Source of the DNA: Rugalucina vietnamica
Lineage: Eukaryota > Mollusca > Bivalvia > Lucinida > Lucinidae
Assembly: GCA_964017185.1 (NCBI GenBank)
Contig: OZ024877.1
Location: forward strand, 8,960,201 to 9,024,200
DNA length: 64,000 bases
Direction: 5' to 3'
Positions 15,410 through 52,016 of this stretch are shown in pieces. How positions within the stretch are numbered: position 1 is the stretch's first letter; every line of letters begins with the position of its first letter. Position numbers and translations under genes: made by a program. Below the pieces are notes generated by a model. The model made no database searches. It saw only the letters and a program-made list of their open reading frames with translations, and had not been told where the DNA came from.

Positions 15410-16990
15410 ACAAAAAGGTACAAGTAGGCAAAGATCGGGAAAGGGCGCAATCAGAAAAAGATTCCCACTCCAAAAACCGAGGTGGGAAAAAACCAAACTA
15501 ACAATCAGGTATTTATACCGAATGAGCAGCTATTTTCCCAATAGGTGGCCACTCAGTTACCTTAACTTAACTAAAATATGATAACATACATAAGACGCCA
15601 ACAGCTCAAAAAATTAAACACCAAGACATAAAACAATAAGAACCACAACAGAAGTATCGCCTTGGTACGATCAGTAATATAAAATTACTGGCGGGCTTAA
15701 ACCGGTTTTACAGGATCCTAACCTCACCCTCAGCTTCTGCAGTGGTTCATAACATTTAGTTAGTTGTTCGGTCCTCGTAGTGAATTTCTAACTAGTCAAT
15801 GAATCATTATGGGCAAACGAATAAATCATGATAAATTCCATGATGAATCAAAAACGAGGACTCACAGAATGAGTAAGCTGCCCGACGATGGAGACCCCGG
15901 GGCGCCCAATAACCTACTAACTCCGGAGAAAAAGAAAACCACCAGTTGAATCCCGGTAGGCCAAGCAACAGACAAGAAGCTCCGGCCCCAACCAACTAAA
16001 ATGAATAGCTTTATGTCGGGGCCATCATAGAGTCTGACGCCCGACCCACCGGCGTGCAATTAAAGAAGGCAGCATAGTTATCAACCATGATTGGGTTAAA
16101 AACTAAGCATGCAGGCTGTCGCATAACATTTAAGTTATATCCTATACGTCTGTAACGCGTAATGATTTTTTCTGAATTATGAAGTGGTGGGGGACATATT
16201 GTTTTTGGTGTGGATCCCGTCGGCGTCGGCGTCGGCGGCCTCGGCGTAGCTTTTTGTCTTCATGATATCTCCTGAACCACTGGATGGATTTAGACCAAAC
16301 TGGCACAGAAACTTCATTGGGACAGCCGAATGGAGTGATTAGATTTAGGTGACCTTGACCTAATTTTCAAGGTTACAAAGGTCAATTAACTGTTTGAAAA
16401 TCCAGGTGTCTCCATTCGTTTCCGCTGTCTAACTTGAGTAGTTTTTGACCGATTTTCTTCAAACTTTGCATATGAGTTGATACTGGCAAGGAGTGGTTTG
16501 GGATTGTAGATGGGTAAATTTCGTCAAACGACCTTAGAGTTATGGCCCTTGATTGATGTTAAAAATTGCATTTTTTCGTTTCCACTCTCTAACTTGAGTA
16601 GTTTTTTTTACCGATTTTCTTCAAACTTTGCATATTAGGATTGGTTTGGGATTGTAGATGGGTAAATTTCGAGAAACTTCAAACTTTATAAATATGGACA
16701 GCTGTAACATGTGATATTTTAAAATGTATGTTGGTATACATTGGTTTTAATTTAAAATGTCTGTTGGTATATATTTTTCAGGGTTATATGTAGAAATTTA
16801 CAAAATTAAAAGTGGGTTGGGACAGAGAGGGGGGACATATGTGTTTTCCTCTAGAAACTCCTTCTAGTTTAAAATAAAAATCATTCCTTCCAATAAGTTT
16901 CTTAAATTTGTAAACCAAGTCACCATAAAATTCTGGTTCCGAAAGGCCTTTACTTAAAAGGGTCTTTAGCCCAACATTAAATTTGGGACT
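15410..16990 (-). mobile_element. Naiad PLE, 3' part (minus), interrupted by another repeat
   Basis: The terminal repeat (15414-15815) is followed on the minus strand by the 3' UTR and the end of the RT frame (the C-terminal DSMMAPT-like end is degraded near 16025). Homology to the full copy breaks at about 16178, where ~690 bp of unrelated repeat is inserted, and resumes at about 16870-16987. It is 5'-truncated in the distal RT. The conserved terminal hairpin is present (CAGTAAT and ATTACTG arms near 15670-15690). Confidence 0.85.
16179..16870. mobile_element. Insertion inside the Naiad copy, GGGGGACATAT-ended repeat
   Basis: Bounded by GGGGGACATATTG at about 16190 and GGGGGGACATATGTG near 16835. 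The interior has a GTCGGC run (16217-16245) and a roughly 155-bp tandem duplication (TTGAGTAGTTTTT...CTTCAAACTTTGCATAT at about 16433 and 16590). Elements with such GGGGGACAT ends are common in mollusc genomes; the family name is not known to me. It must be younger than the Naiad copy it splits. Confidence 0.65.
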
Positions 16991-21824: not shown

Positions 21825-22780
21825 AGGTACAAGTAGGCAAAGATCAGGAAAAGGCGCAATCAGAAAAAGATTCCCACTCCAAAAACCGAGATGGGAAAAA
21901 ACCAAACTAACAATCAGGTACTTATACCATGAAACATATCGTAAGCCGAATGAGCAGCTATTTTCCCAATAGGTGGCCACTCAGTTACCTTAACTTAACT
22001 AAAAATATGAAAACATACATAAGGCGCCAACAGCACAAAAAATTTTAAACACCAAGACATAAAACAAAAAGAACCACTACAGAAGTATCGACTTGGAACG
22101 ATCAGTAACACAAAGTTACTGGCGGGCTTAAACCGGTTTTACAGGTACCTAACCTCACCCTCAGCTTCTGTAGTGGTTCAGTGATAAACAAGAAATAAGA
22201 AATCATATTAAGAAAATACTAAACATAGATACCAACGTTTAACATGAATAACGGAAAGCAGAGTGAGCAGCTATTGAAGGTATTAGGTGGTCACAGTGCT
22301 AGCTTGGACAAAACAAGTAAATGCAGAGGGCTAAGTGAACAGCCATTATATTCGGGTGGTCACAAAGCCATGCAACATGAAACTCGTAATTGGAATAACT
22401 TTGATAAGTGTGAACCAGAACAGCAGTACCGCCTTGGTACGGTCAGTTATAAAATAACTGGGGGGCTTAAACCGGTTTTACAGGTACCTAACCTCACCCT
22501 CAGCTTCTGCAGTGGTTCACAACATTTAGTTAGTTCTTCGGTCCTCGTGGTGAATCTCTAACTAGTCAATGAATCATCAAGAACAAACAAATAAATCATG
22601 ATAAACATCCTGATGAATCAAAAACCAGGACTCACAGATTGAGTAAGCTGCCCGACGATGGAGATCCCTGGGCGCCGAATAACCTACTAACTCCGGAGCA
22701 AAAGAAAAACACCAGTTGGACCCCGGTGGGCCAAGCAACAGACAAGAAGCTCCGGCCCCAACCAACTAAAATGAATAGCT
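21825..22780 (-). mobile_element. 3' UTR and tandem terminal units of the minus Naiad copy
   Basis: Reading the minus strand from the RT stop at 22781: the 3' UTR, a first structured unit with a short hairpin (CAGTTATTTTATAACTG, plus 22443-22459), a distinct spacer (about 22181-22430), then a second structured unit and the common 3' end at 21826. In the second unit the two 15-nt arms (22071-22085 and 22165-22179) are perfectly complementary without wobble. The spacer resembles 61010-61455 in the plus-strand tandem copy. Confidence 0.85.
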
Positions 22781-24130
22781 TTAAGTCGGGGCCATCATAG
22801 AGTCTGACGCCCGACCCACCGGCGTGCAATTAAAGAAGGCAGCATAGTTATCAACCATGATTGGGTTAAAAACTAAGCATGCAGACTGTCGCATAACATT
22901 CAAGTTATAACCTATACGTCTGTAACGTGATATGATTTTTCCGAACTGAAGAGAAAAATCATTTATTCCTTTAAGTTTCTTTAATTTGTAAACCAAGTCA
23001 CCATAAAATTCAGGTTCCGAAAGGCCCTCACTTAAAAGTGTCTTTAACCCAACATTATATTTGGAAATCAATTCATAGTGTCTACGATAAAATTTAGAAA
23101 AGGTTTTTCGAAGTTTATGATACCGATAGCCCTGTTGGAGAAGTTTTGCCGTTAAACATTTATTTCGAGCGTTGAAGTCTGTAACATGATTGCAGACTCT
23201 AGCAAACCTAATAAGTTGCGAAATGTATACACCATAAGAAGCACGACGAGGAACGTCACCATCCAAAAAAGGAAAATTTACTATATCAAAATCAAAGTCA
23301 TCGCGCTTATCATAAATTTTAGAAGAAACAAATCCATTTGCAACAGAAAGATGTAGATCTAAAAAGGGGGCTTCGGTATCTGAGATATTAGCTTTGTTCA
23401 ACTGAAGTTCAGGTGGATAAATTTGATTGACCATACCTTCAAAATAAGGGTTGTCAATGTTCAAAAGGTCATCGAGGTACCTAGATGTGGAATTAAAAGC
23501 CTCGATAACATCAGCTTGATTATCATGGTTAAGAGAATCCATGAAATCTCTTTCGTAGCAGTATGAAAATAAATCAGCTACGAGAGGTGCGCAATTTGTA
23601 CCCATCGGAATTCCAACAATTTGTCTGTATAACTTGGTCCCAAATCTAATATAAATATTATCAAGGAGATAGGATAAGGCGTCGCACACATTCTGACATG
23701 ACCAAAGGGTATACCGACTTTGGTCAGAGGAAGTGAAAAAAGCCTTTCTGTCATTACATGCCAAATAAAGTGAACCATAGTTTTTTAATGCCCTTTTGAA
23801 GGTCCACTCTATCAAATCCAGAAGTTTTTCTTTAATTAGATTATGTGGTAATGTTGTATACAGAGTAGAAAAATCATATGTGGACAAGCTTGTCGCACGG
23901 AACCCTCTACACTTCAATTTACTGAGCACCTCACCAGAATTTTTTATTGACCAAAACCAATTTTTATTTGAAGTTTCATACACTGTCTCACAGTATCTTA
24001 TAACATGAGATTTGATAGCAGTAAGACAAGAAGTTAATGATTTAGAAAGTTCAGTGGTAGTACAAGAGCTAGAATTTGCAATAAATCTAGCTTTGTATGG
24101 TCTTTTGTGAAGCTTAGGTAACCAATACAT
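22781..24130 (-). CDS. Naiad PLE reverse transcriptase, C-terminal 449 codons
   Basis: An open RT frame nearly identical to the last half of the copy at 46358-48112. It has YWLPKLHKRPYKARFIA, YDFSTLYTTLP (motif A aspartate), GIPMGTNCAPLVADLF (motif B), YLDDLL (motif C catalytic DD), FLDLHL (motif D region) and a common C-terminus ending MMAPT. The frame continues past the first methionine to the truncation point at about 24180, so the N-terminal GIY-YIG nuclease, the CxC linker and the start of the RT are absent. No stops in the retained part imply a recent insertion. The protein copies Naiad RNA by target-primed reverse transcription, but this copy is not autonomous. Confidence 0.9.
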   Translation of the reverse strand: MYWLPKLHKRPYKARFIANSSSCTTTELSKSLTSCLTAIKSHVIRYCETVYETSNKNWFWSIKNSGEVLSKLKCRGFRATSLSTYDFSTLYTTLPHNLIKEKLLDLIEWTFKRALKNYGSLYLACNDRKAFFTSSDQSRYTLWSCQNVCDALSYLLDNIYIRFGTKLYRQIVGIPMGTNCAPLVADLFSYCYERDFMDSLNHDNQADVIEAFNSTSRYLDDLLNIDNPYFEGMVNQIYPPELQLNKANISDTEAPFLDLHLSVANGFVSSKIYDKRDDFDFDIVNFPFLDGDVPRRASYGVYISQLIRFARVCNHVTDFNARNKCLTAKLLQQGYRYHKLRKTFSKFYRRHYELISKYNVGLKTLLSEGLSEPEFYGDLVYKLKKLKGINDFSLQFGKIISRYRRIGYNLNVMRQSACLVFNPIMVDNYAAFFNCTPVGRASDSMMAPT

Positions 24131-44634: not shown

Positions 44635-45011
44635 TACAAATAGTACTATTCATTATGGCAGGTTTTGTTGTGTCACAGCTTATTCCAAATTTAGATCACT
44701 GACTAAAGTACACATGCAGTAACCTTAAATCAACAGACACTGTCTAGACCAGCCTGGTACTCTATCACCATGTGCTTTGCAAGTGAGAAGACTGTAAGAT
44801 CCAGATCAGCTTGCTACAACTGTGTAATTGATCAGTGTTTTTGTCTTTCTGTAACTATATAAATAGTACTGTTCGTAAGACAAAGTTTGTTGTGACACAG
44901 CTCCAAACTTTGACTTTTGCAATGTTATTGGGTACAAGCCAGTGAAGCCACATCATGAAAAAAGGCGCCACTGTAAATGTTTGTGATCAGCAGTGCAAAA
45001 CCCTGCACTTG

Positions 45012-45056
<45 letters not shown>

Positions 45057-45180
45057 AGTTAATTATCTGTTTGGTCGATGGGCTGTAAGATCCATATCAG
45101 CTCATTGTATGGAAAGTACAGCCACTTAAGATAGACTTTGTTTTGTCATGGCCCTTATGAATAGTACTAGTGTACTGAAC
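44635..45180 (+). repeat. Degenerate tandem duplication with internal 44-bp poly-A
   Basis: AAATAGTACTATTC plus TTTTGTTGTGTCACAGCTT (about 44639-44682), AAATAGTACTGTTC plus GTTTGTTGTGACACAGCTC (44864-44905) and CTGTAAGATCCAGATCAGC/CTGTAAGATCCATATCAGC (44790, 45082) show two to three copies of a ~230-290-bp unit. The poly-A run is at 45012-45055. Confidence 0.6.
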
Positions 45181-45379
45181 TATTACTATAGACACGAAAA
45201 CAAATATGTTTAAATGAGATGCTAACTGACTGGTCTAAAAAGTGTGGATTAACCCAATGTAAACAAATAATTAACCAATATTGTTTAATTTTCGTTAGCT
45301 GATTTACCATAGTTTTGTCTCTGTAGGCTCTTTACTATGCCTTTTTTACCAAATCGTTTTGCAAAAACGATTTGGTTAG

Positions 45380-48112
45380 CACTGTCGTAGAATCAGAAAG
45401 CCCAAAAATAATGATACCTTTCTGTACCAGCATTTTAAGCACACTGGTCATTCTCCCAATAATGTTATAGTTCAACCAGTGGAAAAAATCTCATATGATG
45501 AAAATTCTTCTGTTAGATTCAAAAACATCAAACGATTTGAAACTGAACTTAAATGGATAAAATTATTGCAAACTCCCTTTCCACTGGGATTTAATGACAA
45601 CATTTACCATGAGGGAAATATTTCCAAAATGTCCGATTTTGATGTACTTACACTTTCAGAGTCTCGTAAACGTAAATCTAGATCTCATGGTATACGGGAA
45701 AAGGGTAATGACAAACGTAAACGGTGCGCTACAATGAAATTGAACACTTCCCTTAATGTTTTAGCTGTTAAACTAAGGATTCACGGTCGACATCCAATGC
45801 TGTCTTATCTTAGTTCTCTGCCTATTGCTGTATTACGTTCCTTGGACACAGAGGCTAATAGATTTTACGATAGAAATCATCAAATGTATGACGCTGCACT
45901 GTTAACAAGATGTTATACTCAGCATGATCTTCGTCCATTTATCGATTCCGAATCTAATCATATTAGAAGTTTTATTAAAATTCCTGTCATTAATAAAGGA
46001 ATTGACTTTATTGATTTACCAAGCATATTCCAGGATAAATCAGTGATACAGTCTATACCTACGTACTTCCAAAATTCAGAACCTCCTATTATTTGTTACA
46101 AATATAATAAACCAATAAGAAATACTATTTTTAATTTCAATAAACTTGTTTCTGATCTTGATATCCATGCTAATACTCCTATGTCTTGAGATTGTAAAGA
46201 TTCAAAATTTGTTTATCAACCAGCCGGACATATAGTTACTGGAAATTTAAAAATAATTTCGGATTCTAGAATTCGCAAAATTGTTTCTAAAGGTCCGAAA
46301 TATAGATTCCCATCATACATCAATTTCGATAAATGTAGAGAGGAGATTGCATCTGCATTGAATGATTTCGGTAATCGATGGTGTAAACGAGAGGGTGTTG
46401 AGGATAATGCTCTTAAAGAATGGAAAAGAAGTATCTTCACTATCGTGGATAAACGTATACAGTTTTATTCACAAAATACTAATCTTTTACCTCCTCAACC
46501 TAAATCGTCATTTAGGCATTTGAAGCAGGGTATCCAAGAATTTCGCAGAAAGTATGTCTTGGTTCCGGCAGACAAAGCCGCAAACAATGTTGTTGTTGTT
46601 TGTAGGCTTCACTACGTTAACACCTTAAAACAGGAGCTGGATGGTACCAGGGCTTATCTGGAGACAGATACTGATGAGGTGTCTGTAGTAAATGCCCACT
46701 TAAACGATTTACCTGTTAAGTTTTCTGTTTGTGTCAATGAAGGCCAAGACAAACTTCCTACGATGTATTGGTTACCTAAGCTTCACAAAAGACCATACAA
46801 AGCAAGATTTATTGCAAATTCTAGCTCTTGTACTACTACTGAACTTTCTAAATTATTAACTTCCTGTCTTACTGCTATCAAATCTCATGTTATAAGATAC
46901 TGTGAGACAGTGTATGAAACTTCAAATAAAAATTGGTTTTGGTCAATAAAAAATTCTGGTGAGGTGCTCAATAAATTGAAGTGTAGAGGGTTCCGTGCGA
47001 CGAGCTTGTCCACATATGATTTTTCTACTCTGTATACAACTTTACCACATAATCTAATTAAAGAAAAACTTCTGGATTTGATAGAGTGGACCTTCAAAAG
47101 GGCATTAAAAAACTATGGTTCACTTTATTTGGCATGTAATGACAGAAAGGCTTTTTTCACTTCCTCTGACCAAAGTCGGTATACACTTTGGTCATGTCAG
47201 AATGTGTGCGACGCCTTATCCTATCTCCTGGATAATATTTATATTAGATTTGGGACCAAGTTATACAGACAAATTGTTGGAATTCCGATGGGGACAAATT
47301 GCGCACCTCTCGTAGCTAATTTATTTTTATACTGCTATGAAAGAGATTTCATGGATTCTCTTAACCATGATAATCAAGCTGATGTTATCGAGGCTTTTAA
47401 TTCCACTTCTAGGTACCTCGATGACCTTTTGAACATTGACAACCCTTATTTTGAAGGTATGGTCAATCAAATTTATCCATCTGAACTACAGTTGAACAAA
47501 GCCAATATCTCGGATACCAAAGCCCCCTTTTTAGATCTACATCTTTCTGTTGCAAATGGATTTGTTTCTTCTAAAATTTATGATAAGCGCGATGATTTTG
47601 ATTTTGATATAGTAAATTTTCCGTTTTTGGATGGTGACGTTCCTCGTCGTGCTTCTTATGGTGTATACATTTCGCAACTTATTAGGTTTGCTAGAGTCTG
47701 CAATCATGTTACAGACTTCAACGCTCGAAATAAATCTTTAACGGCCAAACTTCTCCAACAGGGCTATCGGTATCATAAACTTCGAAAAACCTTTTCTAAA
47801 TTTTATCGTAGACACTATGAATTGATTTCCAAATATAATGTTGGGTTAAAGACGCTTTTAAGTGAGGGTCTTTCGGAACCAGAATTTTATGGTGACTTGG
47901 TTTACAAATTTAAGAAACTTATAGGAAGTAATGATTTTTCTTTTCAGTTTAGAAAAATCATAACACGTTACAGACGTATAGGTTATAACTTGAATGTTAT
48001 GCGACAGTCTGCATGCTTAGTTTTTAACCCACTCACGGTTGATAACTATGCTGCCTTCTTTAATTGCACGCCGGTGGGTCGGGCGTCAGACTCTATGATG
48101 GCCCCGACTTAA
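45380..48112 (+). CDS. Naiad Penelope-like element ORF: GIY-YIG remnant, CxC linker, RT; one in-frame UGA
   Basis: One frame open for ~910 codons from the truncation point to TAA at 48110-48112, with a single internal stop, TGA at 46187-46189. Order: residues ~1-70, distal part of a GIY-YIG nuclease (FLYQHF, GHSP, ETELKWIKLL); ~70-265, linker with basic segment; ~270-290, CxC domain (UGA-Asp-Cys, then YQPAGHIVTG); then the PLE-type RT with LPKLHK, YDFSTLYTTLP, GIPMGTNCAP, YLDDLL at about 679-684 and FLDLHL. N-terminal nuclease, CxC linker and C-terminal RT is the order that defines the Naiad clade. The first visible GTG codon in this frame (45479) is not a credible start; the true start was lost by 5' truncation. 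The UGA replaces the first Cys of CxC: either a point mutation (TGT or TGC to TGA) or a selenocysteine codon. Confidence 0.9.
46187..46189 (+). other. In-frame UGA at the first cysteine of the CxC motif
   Basis: Codon context is ATG TCT TGA GAT TGT AAA. The residue two downstream is Cys (TGT), followed by KDSKFVYQPAGH, so the UGA sits where CxC demands cysteine. All downstream codons to 48112 are open. Clam and spider Naiads have been reported as selenoproteins; I do not recall whether this position is one of those described. Confidence 0.85.
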
Positions 48113-48737
48113 AGCTATTCATTTTAGTTGGTTGGGACCGGAGCTTCTTGTCTGTTGCATGGCCCACCGGGGTCCAACTGATGTTTTTCTTTAGCTCCGG
48201 AGTTAGTAAGTTATTTGGCGCCCAGGGATCTCCATCGTCGGGCAGCTTACTGAATCTGTGAGTCCTGGTTTTTGATTCATCAGGATGGTTATCATGATTT
48301 ATTTGTTTGTTCTTGATGATTCATTTACTAGTTAGAGATTCACCACGAGGACCGAAGAACTAACTAAATGTTATGAACCACTGCAGAAGCTGAGGGTGAG
48401 GTTACGGCCGTGTAAAATCGATTTAAACCCGCCAGTAACTTTGTGTTACTGATCGTTCCAAGTCGATACTTCTGTGGTGGTTCTTTTTGTTTTATGTCTT
48501 GGTGTTTAAAATATTTTTGTGCTGTTGGCGCCTTATGTATGTTTGCATATTTTTAGTTAAGTTAAGGTAACTGAGTGGCCACCTATTGGGAAAATAGCTG
48601 CTCATTCGGCTTACGAAGTGTTTTCATGGTATAAGTGCCTGATTGTTAGTTTGGTTTTTTTCCCACCTTGGTTTTTGGAGTGGGAGTCTTTTTCTGATTG
48701 CGCCTTTTCCTGATCTTTGCCTACTTGTACTTTTTTA
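48113..48737 (+). mobile_element. Naiad 3' UTR and terminal repeat of the long copy
   Basis: From the stop codon to CTACTTGTACTTTTTT. It contains, in order, the CCACCGGGGTCCAACTG segment, GAGATTCACCACGAGGACCG, the closing-helix 5' strand (48375-48389), a central segment (GGTGAGGTTA), a 7-bp hairpin (48433-48451), the closing-helix 3' strand (48469-48483) and a terminal segment ending at the shared 3' boundary. The same block recurs about fifteen times in the window in both orientations. In PLEs such blocks are the pseudo-LTRs. Confidence 0.9.
48375..48483 (+). ncRNA. Candidate structured RNA domain in the Naiad terminal repeat
   Basis: GAACCACTGCAGAAG (48375-48389) can pair over 15 bp with CTTCTGTGGTGGTTC (48469-48483), using two G-U pairs. 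Inside lies a CAGTAAC/GTTACTG hairpin (48433-48451, 5-nt loop). Compensatory differences exist among copies. At 22071-22085 and 22165-22179 the wobble pairs become Watson-Crick. At 60.96 kb and 22.44 kb the hairpin becomes CAGTTA/TAACTG. Position and layout recall the hammerhead domains of other PLE pseudo-LTRs, but the CUGANGA...GAAA core is absent. Function is unproven. Confidence 0.6.
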
Positions 48738-50881: not shown

Positions 50882-52016
50882 AAGTAGGCAAAGATCAGGA
50901 AAAGTCGCAATCAGAAAAAGATTCCCACTCCAAAAACCGAGGTGGGAAAAAACCAAACTAACAATCAGGTACTTATACCATGAAACATATCGTAAGCCGA
51001 ATGAGCAGCTATTTTCCCAATAGGTGGCCACTCAGTTACCTTAACTTAACTAAAAATATGAAAACATACATAAGGCGCCAACAGCACAAAAAATTTTATT
51101 CACCAAGACATAAAACAAAAAGAACCACCACAGAAGTATCGACTTGGAACGATCAGTAACACAAAGTTACTGGCGGGCTTAAACCGGTTTTACAGGTACC
51201 TAGCCTCACCCTCAGCTTCTGCAGTGGTTCATATAGTTCTTCGGTCCTCGTGGTGAATCTCAATGACTCATCAAGAACAAACAAATAAATCATGATAAAC
51301 ATCCTGATGAATCAAAAACCAGGACACACAGATTGAGTAAGCTGCCCGACGATGGAGATCCCTGGGCACCGAATAACTTACTTACTCCGGAGCAAAAGAA
51401 AAACATCAGTTGGACCCCGGTGGGCCATGCAACAGACAATTAGCTCCGGCCCCAAACAACTAAAATGAATAGCTTTAAGTCGGGGCCATCATAGAGTCTG
51501 ACGCCCGACTCACCGGCGTGCAATTAAAGAAGGCAGCGTAGTTATCAACCGTGATTGGTTTAAAAACTAAGCATGCAGACTGTCGCATAAAATTCAAGTT
51601 ATAACCTATACGTTTGTAACGTGTTATGATTTTTCTAAACTGAAAAGAAAAATCATTACTTCCTTTCTTAAATTTGTAAACCAAGTCACCATAAAATTCT
51701 GGTTCCGAAAGGCCCTCACTTAAAAGCGTCTTTAACCCAACATTATATTTGGAAATCAATTCATAGTCTCTACGATAAAATTTAGAAAAAGGTTTTTCGA
51801 AGTTTATGATACCGATAGCCCTGTTGGAGAAGTTTGGCCGTTAAACATTTATTTCGAGCGTTGAAGTCTGTAACATGATTGCAGACTCTAGCAAACCTAA
51901 TATGTTGCGAAATGTATACACCATAAGAAGCACGACGAGGAACGTCACCATCCAAAAACGGAAAATTTACTATAACAAAATCAAAGTCATCGCGCTTATC
52001 ATACATTTTAGAAAAG
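50882..52016 (-). mobile_element. Naiad PLE 3' end with broken RT (minus)
   Basis: Terminal repeat 50882-51240, shortened 3' UTR (a ~30-bp gap versus other copies near 51233-51265), then the RT C-terminus on the minus strand (51475 up to about 52016). The RT frame is broken near 51770-51785 by a one-base slip and lacks a few codons near 51665. It starts within the KIYDKRDDFDF region, so it is strongly 5'-truncated. It sits in the same intron as the long copy, opposite in orientation. Confidence 0.88.

What the first reader, a model, noticed from the sequence alone, without database searches (positions are those of the whole stretch)
46187..46189. UGA codon exactly at the first cysteine of the Naiad CxC motif: selenocysteine candidate
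Seen: the long Naiad frame (45380-48112) is open for about 910 codons except one TGA, and that TGA takes the place of the first Cys in CxC (UGA-Asp-Cys). Known: the Naiad clade of Penelope-like elements has N-terminal GIY-YIG, a CxC linker and C-terminal RT, and Naiads of spiders and clams were reported to encode selenoproteins. Inferred: recoding is possible here. The alternative, a chance TGT/TGC to TGA mutation, needs only one base change. No other copy in the window covers this codon, and I found no convincing SECIS in the 3' UTR.
Basis: partly seen in the sequence, partly recalled or inferred. Interest (0 to 1): 0.82.

Follow-up and report, generated by a model that had tools for sequence, protein, structure and literature searches.

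The report
Retrotransposon that encodes three selenocysteines
The odd stop codon is a family-wide feature of a jumping gene that very probably reads three UGA codons as the rare amino acid selenocysteine, helped by an RNA hairpin that overlaps the gene's own true stop codon.

Summary
In detail: TGA 46187-46189 interrupts an otherwise open frame (269 + 640 codons) in UGA-Asp-Cys. It is not private to this copy. Its flanks occur at 1,445 genomic sites; of the 100 listed, 96 carry TGA, as do 55 of 57 fetched copies.

The window copy is 5'-truncated. Longer copies carry two more fixed in-frame TGAs upstream, in the endonuclease-like part (20/21 and 22/22; 144 of 150 scored genomic places read "2 TGA"). 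No other codon of the 997 tabulated has a stop above 6%. Downstream of the TGA, variants shared between copies are strongly synonymous (4 N: 42 S against 382:173 for private ones), so source elements translate it.

It straddles the stop codon, whose UAA supplies two conserved As.

Best reading: a Naiad-type Penelope element encoding a three-Sec protein. Selenoprotein Naiads of clams and spiders are already published (recalled; paper not held), so this is a member of a known kind. Side lead: a twister-like, self-complementary RNA in the pseudo-LTR.

The parts
45358..48736 (+). 5'-truncated Naiad-type Penelope-like element (98.3% alike to L020)
   Evidence: blastn footprint; homology to the longer copy L020 starts at 45358 and ends at 48735-48737
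45380..48112 (+). frame open but for one TGA (269 + 640 codons); N-terminal part missing; private TAG at 45377-45379
   Evidence: GAG in 25 of 27, GAA in 1, TAG in 1 copy at this codon
46187..46189 (+). in-frame TGA, third Sec codon of the family (U437 counted from the first in-frame ATG of L020), first position of the U-D-C motif
46193..46195 (+). second Cys of the CxC motif, TGT in 54 of 54 copies
   Evidence: L020 2516
46190..48109 (+). reverse-transcriptase part (YLDD and GIPMGTNCAPL motifs read by eye)
   Evidence: Pfam RVT_1 only at E 0.089; shared variants 4 N: 42 S
48087..48154 (+). SECIS element (SECIS_1): AUGA 48095-48098, AAA 48111-48113, GGAG 48140-48143
48110..48112 (+). true stop codon UAA; its two As are the first two of the SECIS AAA
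48375..48736 (+). probable pseudo-LTR unit; solo fragments start at 48374/48375
   Evidence: 7 of 103 matches start there, 44 start at the edge of the query
48375..48489 (+). structured RNA with a twister-like core and two self-complementary stretches

Best explanation
The TGA is a selenocysteine codon. The window holds a 5'-truncated copy of a young, multi-copy Naiad-type Penelope-like retrotransposon. Its full protein has an N-terminal GIY-YIG-like endonuclease, a CxC linker and a C-terminal reverse transcriptase. It reads UGA as Sec at three places: two in the endonuclease (...SDLD-U-KSMDLVYVLT-U-NT...) and one at the first position of CxC (U-D-C). The signal is a SECIS hairpin that begins in the last eight codons and runs over the UAA stop into the 3' UTR. 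Shown: three fixed TGAs, an open and selected frame around them, a family-wide SECIS, and tRNA-Sec in the genome. Inferred: that the inserted residue is Sec, and that the UGA positions equal the conserved Cys of other Naiads (recalled, not aligned here).
For: TGA at the three codons in 20/21, 22/22 and 55/57 copies; no other stop above 6% in 997 codons. 96 of 100 listed of 1,445 sites TGA. 144 of 150 best-scored endonuclease places read through exactly two TGA. Shared against private variants N:S 4:42 vs 382:173 in the RT part (p = 4e-16) and 4:9 vs 158:69 between the first and third UGA (p = 0.006); 0 shared stops. SECIS_1 in 11 of 11 longer copies, 30.6-39 bits. In the whole window the only three gathering-level Rfam hits are SECIS_1 at the ends of three Naiad copies. 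0 shared variants in the 68-nt SECIS against 49 in the next 580 nt. L020 SECIS fold z = -4.94. Two tRNA-Sec genes over the cut-off.
Against: No protein, ribosome or expression data. SepSecS (PF05889) was not found in an exon-by-exon search. selD-like exons score below the cut-off, and that model also rings in 13 of 14 control genomes. 3 of 11 SECIS copies score just under the cut-off, and a fourth SECIS-region copy in the window, near 51372-51570, is not listed at gathering level. The window copy's own SECIS folds only weakly better than shuffles (z = -1.78, 11 of 200 as good). The hairpin overlaps the stop codon, where ribosomes would melt it. None of the fetched copies has the whole frame undamaged. 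Domain identity rests on weak hits and motifs read by eye; the endonuclease model was useless (pLDDT 29.8).
Confidence: 0.92

Rival explanations
1. Ordinary stop-codon read-through: near-cognate tRNAs pass the UGAs without selenocysteine.
For: UGA is the leakiest stop (general knowledge); the frame downstream is selected.
Against: It needs three read-throughs in one protein and does not explain why a SECIS stands at the end of the frame in 11 of 11 longer copies scanned, or why the third UGA lies in UxC beside an invariant Cys.
Confidence: 0.04
2. The UGAs are real stops that split the element into separate proteins, with the RT made by re-initiation or an internal start.
For: The 640-codon RT frame is complete downstream of the third UGA.
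Against: The first two UGAs are only 11 codons apart inside the endonuclease motif, so a stop there would destroy it; UGA and never UAA/UAG is fixed; it does not explain the SECIS.
Confidence: 0.02
3. A chance mutation, or a dead or non-autonomous family moved in trans by a Cys-encoding element.
For: One base separates TGT/TGC from TGA; single TGT and TGC copies exist.
Against: TGA is fixed at three positions, also in older copies; shared variants downstream are 4 N: 42 S with no stop, which a family moved in trans would not keep.
Confidence: 0.01
4. Code change or RNA editing (UGA to UGG).
For: None found here; not searched for directly.
Against: Trp is written TGG in the frame and TGA is fixed at only three of 997 codons.
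Confidence: 0.01

Closest known systems
Naiad clade of Penelope-like elements with selenoproteins (Craig, Yushenova, Rodriguez and Arkhipova 2021, Mol Biol Evol; recalled, paper not held)
   Same: Recalled: N-terminal GIY-YIG, CxC linker, C-terminal RT; Naiads of spiders and clams encode selenoproteins with several Sec. Order of parts, UxC and three UGAs agree.
   Different: Could not compare: whether this species or family is in that paper, and whether a SECIS that straddles the stop codon was described there.
Canonical Penelope-like elements (Poseidon of Anolis, PMC11167929; passages seen)
   Same: One frame with GIY-YIG endonuclease and RT, pseudo-LTRs, tandem arrays.
   Different: There the endonuclease is C-terminal and a hammerhead ribozyme is in the pLTR; here it is N-terminal, no hammerhead was reported in the stretches scanned, and the pLTR start is twister-like.
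Eukaryotic SECIS elements, Rfam RF00031
   Same: AUGA / AAA / GA core and two helices, at or near the curated cut-off.
   Different: [quoted passage not shown] here the 5' 23 nt are coding and the stop codon is part of the conserved AAA.

Membership tests
Eukaryotic selenoprotein gene | In-frame UGA fixed where the frame continues under selection | tested here: met
Eukaryotic selenoprotein gene | SECIS in the mRNA downstream of the UGA | tested here: met
   SECIS_1; about 1,900 nt downstream of the UGA; straddles the stop codon
Eukaryotic selenoprotein gene | Host makes Sec-tRNA | tested here: inconclusive
   two tRNA-Sec over the cut-off; selD-like exons, unspecific model; SepSecS not found
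Eukaryotic selenoprotein gene | Sec in the protein | not testable with these tools
   needs mass spectrometry or a reporter
Eukaryotic selenoprotein gene | Cys homologue aligned at the UGA | tested here: inconclusive
   no relative found in viral contigs or genome contigs; other QYVGE-type places exist (72 matches) but their letters could not be fetched
Naiad (Penelope-like element) | N-terminal GIY-YIG endonuclease | tested here: inconclusive
   phrog_314 homing endonuclease E 9.7e-5; no Pfam or PDB hit; motif VYVLT...QYVG...R by eye; model unusable
Naiad (Penelope-like element) | CxC linker between endonuclease and RT | tested here: met
   U-D-C at 46187-46195, as UxC; that CxC defines Naiads is recalled
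Naiad (Penelope-like element) | C-terminal RT | tested here: inconclusive
   RVT_1 E 0.089, under the cut-off; YLDD and GIPMG motifs by eye
Naiad (Penelope-like element) | pseudo-LTRs and head-to-tail tandem copies | tested here: met
   places spaced 4227, 4228 and 4279 bases apart; solo fragments starting at 48374/5
Naiad (Penelope-like element) | position in the RT tree, IFD domain | not tested
   no reference set of Penelope-like proteins on hand
Twister ribozyme (side lead) | Rfam match over the gathering score | tested here: not met
   twister-P1 23.3 bits against 67.2; Twister-P5 model gives no Naiad match; older copy no match
Twister ribozyme (side lead) | core letters and helices P2, P3, P4 in circularly permuted order | tested here: met
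   own descriptor with up to 5 mismatches: 48 spots, 0 in 2.13 Mb of shuffled sequence; descriptor written after seeing the sequence

The most novel reading that the evidence does not exclude
One mobile element joins three unusual RNA devices: a three-Sec protein with Sec in place of putative metal-ligand Cys; a SECIS that shares its conserved AAA with the stop codon, so that termination and Sec decoding interfere and could limit output; and at the start of its pseudo-LTR a permuted twister-like ribozyme core that lacks a cis P1 and instead has two self-complementary stretches, so that it would fold and cut as an RNA dimer from tandem copies, as the hammerheads of canonical Penelope elements are reported to do (title in a reference list).
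Probability: 0.28. Interest if true: 0.78.

Novelty: new member of a known kind. Interest (0 to 1): 0.52.

Why it matters
Selenocysteine insertion is slow and depends on selenium, so a retrotransposon that fixed three such codons in more than a thousand copies is a natural test of what Sec can do that Cys cannot in an endonuclease or linker. The high copy number gives a mutational experiment: each dead copy shows the neutral spectrum, and shared variants show what selection allowed. The SECIS over the stop codon asks directly whether a eukaryotic SECIS may overlap the translated region. Because selenoprotein Naiads are, from memory, already published, the main point is confirmatory; the overlap with the stop codon and the pLTR RNA are the parts worth new work.

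Tried and rejected
Tried without gain. Relatives with Cys at the UGA sites: none in viral contigs or genome contigs. The pattern CARTAYGTNGGNGARACN found 72 places in the own genome (the reversed-pattern control found 4), probably other endonuclease families, but their sequence could not be fetched. Domain searches were weak: Pfam no hit for the endonuclease part and RVT_1 E 0.089 for the RT; PDB nothing for the endonuclease and one unrelated weak hit, ClbS, E 0.031, for the RT; PHROGs homing endonuclease E 9.7e-5. AlphaFold on the endonuclease part gave pLDDT 29.8, so no fold search was run. SepSecS not found.

Papers. Searches asked for Penelope or Naiad with selenoprotein or selenocysteine: 0, 0, 0 and one unrelated listing. 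The Naiad paper by DOI, a PubMed id and two hammerhead papers are not held. Passages only were seen of PMC10085705, PMC7761336, PMC11167929 and PMC10941475; of PMC8881744 only the abstract in a listing.

Considered and rejected: a chance mutation, a family moved in trans, code change, RNA editing, split proteins (see rivals). For the pLTR RNA: a hammerhead (no CUGAUGA/GAAA by eye and no Rfam hit). The second palindrome alone is not significant on distinct haplotypes (3,375 of 20,000 shuffles reach it).

Full report
What was checked. The codon 46187-46189 is TGA. Stop to stop the frame runs 45380-46189 (269 aa) and 46190-48112 (640 aa), the second part beginning Asp-Cys.

The copy in the window is incomplete. 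Its match to longer copies begins at 45358, and it alone among 27 aligned copies has TAG where 25 have GAG and one GAA (45377-45379, L020 position 1700).

The family. A search of the own genome (1.09 Gb, unnamed) with 45380-46180 gave 1,632 candidates, of which 40 were scored at 98-100% identity. The flanks of the codon, with up to 3 mismatches, occur at 1,445 sites. Only 100 places are listed, all with zero mismatches and so biased to young copies: 96 TGA, 2 TGG, 1 TGT, 1 TGC. I fetched 40 of the first 41 of these, plus 16 loci (two of the 16 are the window copy itself; one was dropped). In these the codon is TGA in 55 of 57 aligned copies. Older decayed copies, 85-92% alike, with stops and frameshifts of several kinds elsewhere, also have TGA here (L010, L013, L015).

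Two more UGAs. In longer copies the frame continues upstream...VVNDSDLD-UGA-KSMDLVYVLT-UGA-NTYNCRMQYVGQTCRTLQKRFGEHYRRIRK.... These codons are TGA in 20 of 21 and 22 of 22 copies; with the finding's codon they are the only three of the 997 codons tabulated at which any stop exceeds 6% (about the last 105 codons were not tabulated). A protein search of the own genome with a Cys version of this stretch scored 150 of 1,440 candidate places: 144 read through exactly two TGA, five through one TGA, one through a TGA and a TAA, none through zero. Counted from the first in-frame ATG of L020 (position 1202) the three are residues 133, 144 and 437. The first two would be the two Cys of the CCHH motif that I recall as typical of Penelope endonucleases, and the third the first Cys of CxC; both identifications are recalled and motif-based.

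The frame beyond the UGAs is used. Private variants (one copy) stand for neutral decay; variants shared by four or more copies descend from source elements. In the RT part private variants are 382 non-synonymous to 173 synonymous with 32 stops, shared ones 4 to 42 with none (p = 4e-16); between the first and third UGA 158:69 against 4:9 (p = 0.006) (matches of 93% identity or more; relatedness among copies not corrected). At ordinary Cys codons TGA arises in 3 of 1,013 cells. None of the fetched copies keeps the whole frame undamaged; the longest run, in L030, is 1,051 codons with only the three TGAs before the frame is lost near the C-terminus.

The SECIS. Rfam finds SECIS_1 at 48087-48154 with 35.8 bits, over its curated cut-off of 35 (E = 2.6e-5 for 851 bases). 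Eleven of twelve longer copies listed were scanned (L056 left out for size): all 11 match at the same place, seven with 39 bits, one with 35, three just below (34.2, 31.7, 30.6). In a scan of the whole 64-kb window the only three hits over any family's cut-off are SECIS_1, each at the end of a Naiad copy (48087-48154 +, 22739-22806 -, 15969-16036 -); a fourth copy of that region, near 51372-51570, is not among them. The 68 nt carry no shared variant, against 49 in the next 580 nt. The L020 SECIS folds far better than shuffles (z = -4.94), the window's mutated one only weakly (z = -1.78). Its position is peculiar: the AUGA lies in the last codons (48095-48098) and the conserved AAA is 48111-48113, that is, the two As of the UAA stop and the next base. 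[quoted passage not shown] I have not found out whether an overlap like this has been described.

Host machinery. Two tRNA-Sec genes exceed the cut-off (79 and 71.2 bits; five of 14 control genomes exceed it). Four colinear exon-like matches to selD lie on C7:33773303-33776104, best E 1.4e-9, all below the whole-protein cut-off; the model also rings in 13 of 14 controls, so this is weak. SepSecS was not found; the search goes exon by exon and found no candidates, so this is weak evidence of absence.

Mechanism. I conclude that SECIS-directed decoding inserts Sec at all three UGAs. What is shown is the sequence pattern; insertion is inferred. How the system tolerates a SECIS that a terminating ribosome must cover is open: it may simply refold between ribosomes, or it may keep output low.

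Known or new. From memory, Craig and co-workers (2021) described Naiads and reported that those of spiders and clams encode selenoproteins with several Sec. That paper is not held, and searches for Penelope or Naiad with selenoprotein or selenocysteine gave nothing of use. The host here is unnamed. I therefore rate this a new member of a known kind, not a discovery of the kind.

A second RNA in the same 3' region. The stretch 48375-48489 opens the probable pseudo-LTR and folds well (z = -4.08). Rfam gives only a weak twister-P1 match (23.3 bits against 67.2; E 0.022, 0.0033 in the shorter stretch; only one of 11 copies is listed, at E 0.95). Read in circularly permuted order it has P2 GGGU/ACCC, GAGGU, UAA, GC, a P3 hairpin, and P4 AUC/GAU around GUUCCAAGUC (Rfam consensus GUCCCAAGCC). 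A descriptor written after seeing this finds 48 spots in the held sequence and none in 2.13 Mb of mononucleotide shuffles; all 61 occurrences of the loops involved lie in pLTR matches. An older copy at 22428-22443 (-) keeps P4 as ACC/GGU and both pseudoknot pairings with other letters. Against it: the Twister-P5 model gives no Naiad hit, the older copy has no twister hit, the commonest form has a U-U mismatch in one pseudoknot, and there is no P1 in cis. In place of P1 stand two self-complementary stretches. In 52 of 62 copies where both were located, the first is ACGGCCGT, ATGGCCAT, AGGTACCT, AGGATCCT, AGGCGCCT or AGGGCCCT in 50 and an imperfect form in two; its innermost, adjacent pair appears as G-C, T-A, A-T and C-G, which only pairing between two molecules or two copies can explain (2 of 20,000 shuffles of the eight haplotypes pair as well). 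The second varies between ATCGAT and ACCGGT but is not significant alone. A dimer is predicted 10.9 kcal/mol more stable than two monomers. Canonical Penelope elements carry hammerheads reported to cut as dimers (title in a reference list). A dimeric twister-like ribozyme is my boldest reading; I would not put it above one in three.

Noticed in passing
48375-48489 (+): Structured RNA at the start of the probable pseudo-LTR with a twister-like core in permuted order and two self-complementary stretches that covary as palindromes between copies; Rfam support is weak or absent.
   Followed up: partly
22739-22806 (-), 15969-16036 (-): Two further SECIS_1 matches over the cut-off, each at the end of another Naiad copy.
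   Followed up: yes
window, 19 blastn matches from 9930 to 62603: The window holds many Naiad fragments besides the finding, most of them pieces of the 3' end or pseudo-LTR.
   Followed up: partly
G000:C3:25245882, 25250161, 25254440; C3:25763775-25772372; C1:28935475-28944074: Endonuclease matches at regular 4227-4279-base spacing, that is head-to-tail arrays of whole elements.
   Followed up: no
about 45342-45377: ACCAAATCG...CGATTTGGT inverted repeat at the truncated 5' junction of the copy (by eye).
   Followed up: no
G000, 72 places of CARTAYGTNGGNGARACN: Other QYVGE-type endonuclease candidates in the same genome, possibly further Penelope families; sequence could not be fetched.
   Followed up: no
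44900-45060: A run of about 40 A at 45011-45055 follows an A-rich end, possibly the tail of another retroposed sequence (by eye).
   Followed up: no
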